Translations under genes and position numbers: made by a program
Shown here: positions 33,201-35,131 of the stretch, one piece after another
How the letters are laid out: the number at the start of each line of letters is the position of its first letter
Position numbering within the stretch: position 1 is the stretch's first letter
Source of the DNA: Polytrichum commune
Taxonomy: Eukaryota; Streptophyta; Polytrichopsida; Polytrichales; Polytrichaceae
DNA: 64,000 bases
Direction of reading: 5' to 3'
Assembly (NCBI GenBank): GCA_950295325.1
Contig: OX485805.1
Location: 744,501-808,500, forward strand
Notes under the pieces: generated by a model
Database searches by the model: none
What the model saw: the letters and a program-made list of their open reading frames with translations, nothing else
Told to the model about the DNA's origin: nothing

Positions 33201-35131
33201 CCACCTCAGAAAACAAGCACTTCGTCTTCACAGATCAACAGAAGATGAGAGGTTTGATTCAGGTTGAGTGTTAAGTGAAGAATTGAACAAAAATAATATA
33301 TATGTTCTTGTGGTCAATTCCTTGACAAAGAGAGTTGAACAGGGGACAAAACAAGAACTTTTCTGATTCAGAAGATTTCTGCAAAATGAAAAACCACCTG
33401 AGGTGGACGGGCCTTTCTCAAACACTCCTCTAATGTAAAACCTATTATTCAGCTCCCAAAAACAGAACTAAGGCCATAAAAGTTCCTAAAAGTGTTGAAT
33501 TACTTGGAGAGTTGCTAATTGCAAGAATGTCCCTAAAAGTTTACCCTATAAGCAAAAACATCTGAATTCCTGGACGTGTCTGAGATAGACTCATCCCCCT
33601 TAACTCCCAACAACAAGAATTCCAACTCTACAACTCTTGACTGAGCTGAGGATTAGGTACTTGCCAACCCCCAGAAACCTGTGCAACAGTGTACCTAAAC
33701 TACTAGCAATTAATGTCGCACAACTGGTGTCCAATGAAACATGACTTGTAGAGGAAGAGGATTGTGAATTTGAGTGTTCAGAGAATGATGTGAAAACAAT
33801 CACCTTGCTCTAATTGCACGCATGCTTGTAGGTTCATAACCTGTGTACGACTGAGTGCTGTACTCAAAATCTGAATCAGGTCCTCCAGGGCAGTAAACAC
33901 AAATATTTCCTGTTGTAGCAATGTGAGGACATCGATGTGGCTTCGACATCACAGCTACCACAGCAATTCCCGATGCTGTCCTCACAGGCTTCGCACGTAG
34001 CCTGGACAAAATCACAGCAGAGTCTCCATCAAAAACTAGAAACAAAAAACCCTAAACTCTGCATCACACACAAAATTCCACAATTCAGCCTGAATTATCA
34101 TTGAAATATGGGCAGGAACTAGCGACAGGCCTCAGCAGCAAAATCTCTCAAGAAATCCCAGCAGGCTCTCCATGGAAACTACAAACAAAAAACCTTAAAC
34201 CCTGCAAAATTCATTCTCGTGGCAAAACAAAATTCCACAATTCAGCCCATGATTTCATTAAAATACGGAGAAGAACTATTGGCACACCTCGGCAGCACCA
34301 TCACCCCGAAACACAGCAGAATCTTCATCACAAACTACAAACAAAAAACCCTAAACCATGCCAAATTCCACAATTCAGCCTGGGATTGTTACAAAATGCA
34401 GCAGAAACCTTTGAAATACATCGGCAGCAATATCTCTCACGAAATTACATCAAACTATCCTCGACAACTAAAATCTAAAAACCTTAAACCTCTGCAAATC
34501 TCATCATCGTGGCGAAGCAAAATTCCACAATTCAGTTTGTAAATTCAAAATAGTGCAGCAGACACACCTCAGCAGAACCATCTCTCTCTCTCTCTCGGAC
34601 TCCGGCAGCACAGCAGACTCTTCATCAAAAACTACAAACAGAAAACCCTTAACCATGCAAAATTCCACAATTCGACCTGTATTCTTTTCAGAATGCGGCA
34701 GAAACCATTGAAATACCTCGGCAGCACCATCTCTCACGGACAAAACACCTTAATCCTCTGCAAATTTCACCATCGCGGGGACATAATTCCACAATTCAGT
34801 CCATAATTTCATTACTATGTGAGGAGGAACAATTGACACACCTCGGTAGGACCATCTCTCTCTCAGACTCTGGCAAGGCAGCAATGAGCTCCACCAATTT
34901 GGGCGCCCGAGAGAGGCCATAGCGTCGACACGCATCGGACTTCAGCGCATTCAAGTCAACATTCTCGCCGCTCCGGCATCCCTGTATCATAGCTCCCACG
35001 ATTTCGGCAATGCATCGAACTCGAGCCTCATCCTCACTCAACGATGTCAAAACCCCGCCCCGCCCCGGCGTCGGCTTCTTCTTGGCTTTCTGCTTCGGCC
35101 CTGCCGCCAAATCCTCCGCCATGGCTACCAT
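30216..35131 (-). CDS. ELP3: ELP3, catalytic subunit of the Elongator complex
   Basis: Ten exons in transcript order: 34842-35131, 33804-34001, 32871-32940, 32483-32655, 32065-32239, 31712-31878, 31354-31573, 30913-31017, 30538-30690, 30216-30386. All junctions are GT-AG with matching phase, giving 573 residues, close to the 565 of Arabidopsis ELP3. ELP3 is the radical SAM/acetyltransferase enzyme that starts cm5U modification of the tRNA wobble uridine, and it is also linked to histone acetylation. The radical SAM cluster is C121-x9-C131-x2-C134 in [14 protein letters not shown]. The GNAT acetyl-CoA loop is QHQGYGTLL at about 515-523. Very conserved runs include [32 protein letters not shown] and [17 protein letters not shown]-like residues at the end. 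The start at 35131 gives MVAMAEDL; the second Met at 35122 is an alternative. Intron 1 is unusual (see the repeat entry). Confidence 0.97.
34002..34870 (-). repeat. Tandem array in ELP3 intron 1 carrying copies of the exon-1 end and 5' splice site
   Basis: About six monomers of 125-157 bases, arranged as pairs with a period near 290 bases (marker TTCCACAATTC at 34076, 34233, 34366, 34523, 34663, 34785). Each monomer contains a copy of the exon-1 3' end (transcript sense GATGGTGCTGCCGAG) followed by donor-like sequence. The true donor is at 34842/34841; copies occur at 34717, 34568, 34420, 34288 and 34131. The copy at 34568 still encodes [14 protein letters not shown], an image of exon-1 [12 protein letters not shown]. 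The copy at 34131 has GC in place of GT. Confidence 0.85.

What the first reader, a model, noticed from the sequence alone, without database searches (positions are those of the whole stretch)
34002..34870. ELP3 intron 1 is an array of six copies of the exon-1 end and its 5' splice site
The intron consists of monomers of about 145 bases, paired into dimers of about 290 bases, and each includes a copy of the last coding bases of exon 1 plus the donor. Besides the true donor there are five copies (34717, 34568, 34420, 34288, 34131). Three keep GAG|GT, one has a mutated exon end and one has GC in place of GT. Using an inner donor would insert low-complexity coding sequence or stops just before the radical SAM domain. 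This could be a splice-choice switch, or neutral intron growth by unequal exchange.
Basis: partly seen in the sequence, partly recalled or inferred. Interest (0 to 1): 0.7.

Follow-up and report, generated by a model that had tools for sequence, protein, structure and literature searches.

The report
Intron grown from repeated exon-end copies
The first intron of a plant ELP3 gene appears to have grown from a short intron to 840 bases by repeated tandem duplication of a stretch spanning the end of the first exon, its splice donor and the intron; the extra donors can only yield broken messages, so this looks like neutral intron growth and not a splice switch.

Summary
ELP3 (minus strand) intron 1, 34841-34002, 840 nt, consists of six diverged monomers of 125-157 nt; five end in a copy of the exon-1 end, four of those followed by GT and one by GC. 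In fixed register the last 20 exon bases match the five copies at 77 of 100 positions, better than any site in the 64 kb outside the copies. The repeat occurs nowhere else in the window. Dimer order is supported in part. Splice choice fails at the coding level: all five inner donors lead into one TGA (codon 112), and of 55 AGs joined to the true donor only the real acceptor gives an open frame. Three of five inner donors equal, or come within 0.5 kcal/mol of, the true donor's predicted U1 pairing, so leaky unproductive splicing is possible. Donor columns are no better conserved than the rest; the conserved element is a 13-nt block present in all six monomers. Best reading: an intron of about 130 nt grew by tandem duplication across the exon/intron boundary, and the extra donors are fossils. 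Species, transcripts and relatives could not be examined.

The parts
34842..35131 (-). ELP3 exon 1 coding part (290 nt, ends in codon position 2); its last 20-40 nt are the source of the repeated exon ends
   Evidence: translation and junction; spliced exon 1+2 protein aligns without a gap at the junction to three PDB chains named Elongator complex protein 3, and matches Pfam ELP3_N
34002..34841 (-). intron 1, 840 nt, GT...AG, made of six diverged monomers
34717..34841 (-). monomer 1 (125 nt): true donor plus body, ends with exon-end copy 2; holds the in-frame TGA met by every inner-donor product
34568..34716 (-). monomer 2 (149 nt), ends with exon-end copy 3 (34568-34608, the longest exon-like copy)
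34420..34567 (-). monomer 3 (148 nt), its donor identical to the true donor over 9 nt, ends with copy 4 (GAT)
34288..34419 (-). monomer 4 (132 nt), ends with copy 5 (GAG|GT)
34131..34287 (-). monomer 5 (157 nt), ends with copy 6 (GAG|GC)
34002..34130 (-). monomer 6 (129 nt), ends at the real acceptor TTTTGTCCAG; likely size and shape of the ancestral intron (inference)
34782..34797 (-). conserved block GAATTGTGGAATTTTG-like, monomer 1 (1 mismatch); sister blocks at 34658-34673, 34518-34533, 34361-34376 (1 mismatch), 34228-34243, 34071-34086
33804..34001 (-). exon 2, start of the conserved [11 protein letters not shown] region

Best explanation
Intron 1 of this ELP3 gene began as a short intron of about 130 nt. 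Tandem duplication (unequal exchange or slippage) of a unit that starts in the last 20-40 coding bases of exon 1 and runs through the donor and most of the intron enlarged it to six monomers, at least partly in two-monomer steps. The first, exon-attached donor must be used, because only it gives an open reading frame; the inner exon ends and donors are intronic by-products that drift. Copy 3 carries more exon sequence than the others and has a different junction, so at least one later exchange with exon 1 is likely. Shown: the array, the exon-end membership, the stop codons, and the absence of other copies in the window. Inferred: ancestral size, number and order of duplications, neutrality.
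For: Six monomers make up the intron and a profile built from them finds nothing else in the window below E 1 (the six at E 1e-27 to 1e-41, by construction; next is the exon end itself at E 1.4). The exon end belongs to the repeat in exact register with the donor (77/100), and it codes residues that align without a gap at the junction to three solved ELP3 chains, so the exon is the likely source and the intronic copies the derivatives. Monomer 6 (129 nt) ends at the real acceptor and is close to the smaller of the other introns (about 140-334 nt for seven of eight, intron 2 about 863). Copy 3 matches the intron end up to TGCTGTG and then the exon (CTGCCGGAGTCCGAGAG...), the expected duplication junction. 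K2P distances of 0.20 to 0.50 speak for separate events and long drift. Donor columns are not preferentially kept: identity 0.625 over the donor hexamer in the five intronic copies against 0.66 for the body without the conserved block in six monomers; the donor-side 20-column window of m1-m5 ranks 49th from the bottom of 140; two of five copies have lost GT or GAG.
Against: A run of 13 invariant columns (GAATTGTGGAATT) in all six monomers is too long for columns drifting independently (0 of 20000 shuffles), so part of the monomer may be constrained. The exon-like end is somewhat better conserved (0.79) than the body (0.70), though 46 of 140 windows, itself included, do as well. Three of five inner donors keep U1 pairing like the true one. 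Copies 4 and 6 alone do not show exon homology convincingly. The similarity between exon 1 and the intron end that could have seeded the first exchange is not significant (p 0.16-0.34). No relative, individual or transcript was available, and the window's genome is not held.
Confidence: 0.8

Rival explanations
1. Unproductive-splicing control: inner donors compete with the true donor and yield messages with a premature stop (nonsense-mediated decay), tuning ELP3 level.
For: Copies 2 and 3 have the same predicted U1 pairing energy as the true donor (-5.8 kcal/mol each), copy 5 is -5.3; the true donor is weak against those of introns 3, 6 and 8 of the gene (-10.2 to -11.0). All inner-donor products stop at codon 112.
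Against: Donor hexamers are not conserved above the body; two of five copies are damaged; weak donors are common in this gene (introns 2, 4, 5, 7, 9: -5.2 to -7.2). The pairing score alone does not single out real donors: a GT at 34304 that is not a donor copy scores best of 87 (-6.4). A decoy of equal strength arises automatically from the duplication.
Confidence: 0.1
2. Selected multiplication of an intronic expression-enhancing element: the conserved 13-16 nt block acts in several copies near the promoter (intron-mediated enhancement), and the donors came along.
For: The block is the longest invariant run, present six times with at most one mismatch, in the first intron 290 nt after the start codon. 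In Arabidopsis, expression rises with the number of TTNGATYTG copies in a first intron (PMC6760150, passages seen).
Against: Intron 1 has 0 exact TTNGATYTG and 3 with one mismatch, intron 2 has 0 and 2; CGATT (an enhancement motif by recall) is in neither. The block is not the known motif, and no expression data are at hand.
Confidence: 0.07
3. The intron was created by tandem duplication of an exonic AGGT segment (Rogers type) and not enlarged from an older intron.
For: Each copy carries an exon end followed in four of five by GT, and the intron starts at the first copy's GT.
Against: The real acceptor (TTTTGTCCAG|GCTACG) is not the AG of an exon-end copy, and monomer 6 as a whole has no significant match to exon 1 (p 0.886, permissive gapped scoring). 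Other species were not available to see whether the position had an intron before.
Confidence: 0.05
4. A dispersed satellite or transposable element that invaded the intron and happened to supply the exon end.
For: The whole genome is not held, so dispersed copies outside the window cannot be excluded.
Against: No other copy found in 64 kb; the exon end codes residues that align to ELP3 of other organisms.
Confidence: 0.03

Closest known systems
Potato RdRp gene intron gain by tandem duplication across an intron-exon boundary (PMC4974935, abstract and passages seen)
   Same: A plant gene; tandem duplication crossing an exon/intron boundary leaves a formerly exonic segment inside an intron, with most splice signals inherited from the parent structure. 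The paper also reports an 83-bp tandem duplication inside the first intron of that gene.
   Different: There the duplication crosses the 3' boundary of an intron and makes a new intron. Here it crosses the 5' boundary, recurs to six monomers and (as inferred) enlarges one existing intron.
Fission yeast introns spanning several copies of a 24-bp AGGT exonic segment (SPOG_01682, SOCG_00815; Zhu and Niu 2013, known here only as described in PMC4974935)
   Same: An intron spanning several tandem copies of a unit that contains a splice-site motif.
   Different: Unit exonic and short; here most of the unit is intron and the acceptor is not a copy of the exon end.
Human introns derived from tandem arrays (Zhuo et al. 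2007, PNAS; title seen in reference lists; text not held)
   Same: By its title, introns that come from tandem arrays and are alternatively spliced.
   Different: Text not read, so no detailed comparison is made.
Novel Drosophila introns from tandem duplication of proto-splice sites (PMC2891723, passages seen)
   Same: Tandem duplication that doubles a splice motif, with the stretch between spliced out.
   Different: Duplications of coding sequence that create new intron positions; here an intron is extended without a change in the protein.

Membership tests
Tandem duplication across an exon/intron boundary | Head-to-tail copies of a unit that includes both exon and intron sequence | tested here: met
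Tandem duplication across an exon/intron boundary | Absence of the duplication in an outgroup | not testable with these tools
   no plant genome collection on hand; the window's own genome is not held
Rogers AGGT intron gain | Acceptor AG is the AG of a later copy of the exonic segment | tested here: not met
   real acceptor TTTTGTCCAG|GCTACG lies at the end of monomer 6, which lacks the exon-end copy; its last 60 nt against exon 1 are not significant (p 0.16-0.34)
Alternative 5' splice-site switch | Alternative donors give at least one further open reading frame | tested here: not met
   5 of 5 inner donors give a stop at codon 112
Alternative 5' splice-site switch | Inner donors used in transcripts | not testable with these tools
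   no transcript data
Intron-mediated enhancement intron | Carries the known motif TTNGATYTG in several copies | tested here: not met
   0 exact and 3 one-mismatch matches in intron 1; 0 and 2 in intron 2
Dispersed repeat or transposable element | Copies outside ELP3 | tested here: inconclusive
   none found in the 64 kb window; genome not held

The most novel reading that the evidence does not exclude
The intronic exon ends form a standing store that exchanges sequence with the real exon end: unequal exchange between exon 1 and an inner copy trades both coding end and donor, tolerated because several copies still code the same residues. Copy 3 would be a recent product: it joins intron and exon sequence at TGCTG, shares the 9-nt donor of exon 1, and five of its six substitutions against the exon are synonymous (p 0.003 to 0.12 depending on the assumed model). 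The conserved 13-nt block could be the recombination-prone or expression-active core that keeps the array alive.
Probability: 0.12. Interest if true: 0.55.

Novelty: new variant of a known kind. Interest (0 to 1): 0.33.

Why it matters
It is a clear snapshot of how an intron can lengthen several-fold without harming the protein: copying a boundary-spanning unit leaves the first donor and the last acceptor in place. It also creates competing donors of like predicted strength, a natural test of what makes the spliceosome choose the first of several such sites. The mechanism itself (tandem duplication across splice boundaries) is known.

Tried and rejected
Searched for other copies of the monomer in the window (none) and for the same habit in the other eight ELP3 introns, whose ends were placed approximately (no direct-repeat family of 25 nt or more across 30200-34001; no exon-tail match at p < 0.05 with 500 shuffles each, introns 2 and 7 lowest at 0.052 and 0.076). 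On the corresponding whole-intron test intron 1 scored 33, reached by 1 of 1000 shuffles, so the fixed-register test is the stronger evidence. Tested cassette exons, alternative acceptors (the first 30 intron bases were not scanned), known enhancement motifs and a seed similarity between exon 1 and the intron end (not significant). The answered paper searches (two searches returned none) gave analogues; judged by the titles and abstract starts listed, none describes an array of 5' splice-site copies in one intron or ELP3 intron 1. The library lacks most subscription journals. The species was not identified; it is judged a land plant from the match to a recalled Arabidopsis ELP3.

Full report
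What is there. The window carries an ELP3 gene on the minus strand, from the ATG at 35131 to about 30234 (the far end was placed by similarity only). Exon 1 (35131-34842, 290 nt) and exon 2 (34001-33804) join to a protein that aligns without a gap at the junction to three distinct PDB sequences named Elongator complex protein 3 (E 1.3e-48 or better; the output names no organisms, I recall them as mammalian and yeast), matches three further ELP3-family chains more weakly, and matches Pfam ELP3_N. Intron 1 is therefore 34841-34002, 840 nt.

The array. Cut at the donor copies, the intron gives monomers of 125, 149, 148, 132, 157 and 129 nt; pairwise identity is 0.64-0.83 and K2P distance 0.20-0.50. 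A profile of the six finds them at E 1e-27 to 1e-41 (by construction) and otherwise, up to E 10, only the exon end itself at E 1.4. The self-comparison gives 795 matching word pairs against 0-21 in 20 shuffles. Tandem Repeats Finder sees only part of it (34070-34368).

Is the exon end truly part of it? In fixed register with the donor, the last 20 exon bases match the five copies at 17, 17, 14, 15, 14 positions, 77 of 100. None of 20000 shuffles, none of 270 other exon-1 windows and no other site on either strand of the window outside the copies reaches that (next best 67). Individually, by local alignment, copies 2 and 3 are strong, 5 moderate, 4 and 6 weak or not significant. Since the exon end codes residues that align to ELP3 of other organisms, the exon is the likely source. 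Copies 2-6 all carry CTG where exon 1 has CTA, a synonymous difference (sequences), as expected if the exon has changed silently since.

Dimers. Shifts of 297 and 290 are the commonest in the self-comparison, the odd/even split is the best of ten, and a roughly 24-nt block marks monomers 1, 3, 5 against 2 and 4 (6 has part). Only the pairing of monomers 2 and 4 is well supported in the tree (0.963; the branch that would part odd from even 0.086). Duplication in two-monomer steps is likely for part of the array but not shown for all.

Junctions. Copy 3 follows the intron end up to TGCTGTG and then exon 1 from CTGCCGGAGTCC on, so the unit joins intron 3' sequence to exon 1. Copy 2 instead passes from TTTTGTCC, as in the real intron end, to GTGAGAGATGG (sequence). 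Two different junctions suggest at least two exchanges; this is inference. The similarity between exon 1 and the intron end that might have seeded the first exchange is not significant. Over 35 aligned bases (its 6-nt AG insertion set aside) copy 3 differs from the exon at six, five of them synonymous. The probability is 0.003-0.02 if all changes fell on a freely drifting copy and 0.03-0.12 if the exon branch also changed silently: suggestive of a late exchange with exon 1, no more.

Can the inner donors do anything? Predicted U1 pairing (9 nt) is -5.8 for the true donor and for copies 2 and 3, -5.3 for copy 5, -0.5 for copy 4 and -3.1 for copy 6 (GC). The score is a blunt tool: a GT at 34304 that is no donor copy ranks first of 87 (-6.4). 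Other donors of the gene, placed within a few bases by best pairing, range from -5.2 to -11.0. All five inner donors produce the same stop at codon 112, because all retain monomer 1. Of 55 AGs from the 31st intron base on, joined to the true donor, only the real acceptor is in frame and open. In-frame open cassette exons with an acceptor in the same monomer are limited to two, of 24 and 18 nt, with 7 and 3 pyrimidines in the 15 bases upstream. The inner donors therefore do not diversify the protein; at most they leak into unproductive messages.

What is conserved? Not the donors: identity in the hexamer is 0.625 among the five intronic copies, against 0.66 for the body without the conserved block. 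The exon-like end is at 0.79, reached by 46 of 140 windows, itself included. The standout is GAATTGTGGAATT, invariant in all six monomers (0 of 20000 column shuffles); its 16-nt form occurs six times in the intron with at most one mismatch. Three other sites in the window match at two or three mismatches, one of them in ELP3 intron 6 or at its edge (31716-31731), where about two would be expected by chance over the window. It is not the known enhancement motif TTNGATYTG, of which intron 1 has no exact copy. Its role is open.

Verdict. A short intron of about the size of monomer 6 (129 nt) most likely grew by tandem duplication of a unit crossing the 5' exon/intron boundary. With a substitution rate of a few per billion site-years (recalled, lineage unknown) the distances would mean tens of millions of years, so related species should share it. 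The nearest described cases seen here are tandem duplications crossing a splice boundary in a potato gene (PMC4974935) and duplications of proto-splice sites in Drosophila (PMC2891723); this one differs by repeatedly copying the 5' splice site inside one growing intron. No relatives, genome or transcripts could be examined here.

Noticed in passing
17724-19107 (+): A second array with a monomer/dimer look (TRF periods 138 and 279), in a long open frame (16744-22323, 1859 aa stop to stop, no Pfam match): acidic repeats of about 46 residues.
   Followed up: partly
34071-34086, 34228-34243, 34361-34376, 34518-34533, 34658-34673, 34782-34797 (-): 16-nt block with a 13-nt invariant core in all six intron monomers, by eye close to a doubled 8-mer (GAATTGTG/GAATTTTG); role unknown. 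A three-mismatch match also lies in or beside ELP3 intron 6 at 31716-31731.
   Followed up: partly
5742-6125 (+) and 25873-26223 (+): Two open frames with alike translated stretches (RRxFLLK...HLKDFL...C...YLKQPL, by eye), no Pfam match; perhaps fragments of one repeated element.
   Followed up: no
49991-52048 (+) and 26906-28483 (-): Neighbouring genes: CDT1-like (CDT1_C) and heparan-alpha-glucosaminide N-acetyltransferase-like.
   Followed up: no
40428-40567, 42112-42272, 60390-60585: Short tandem arrays with periods 56, 42 and 63.
   Followed up: no
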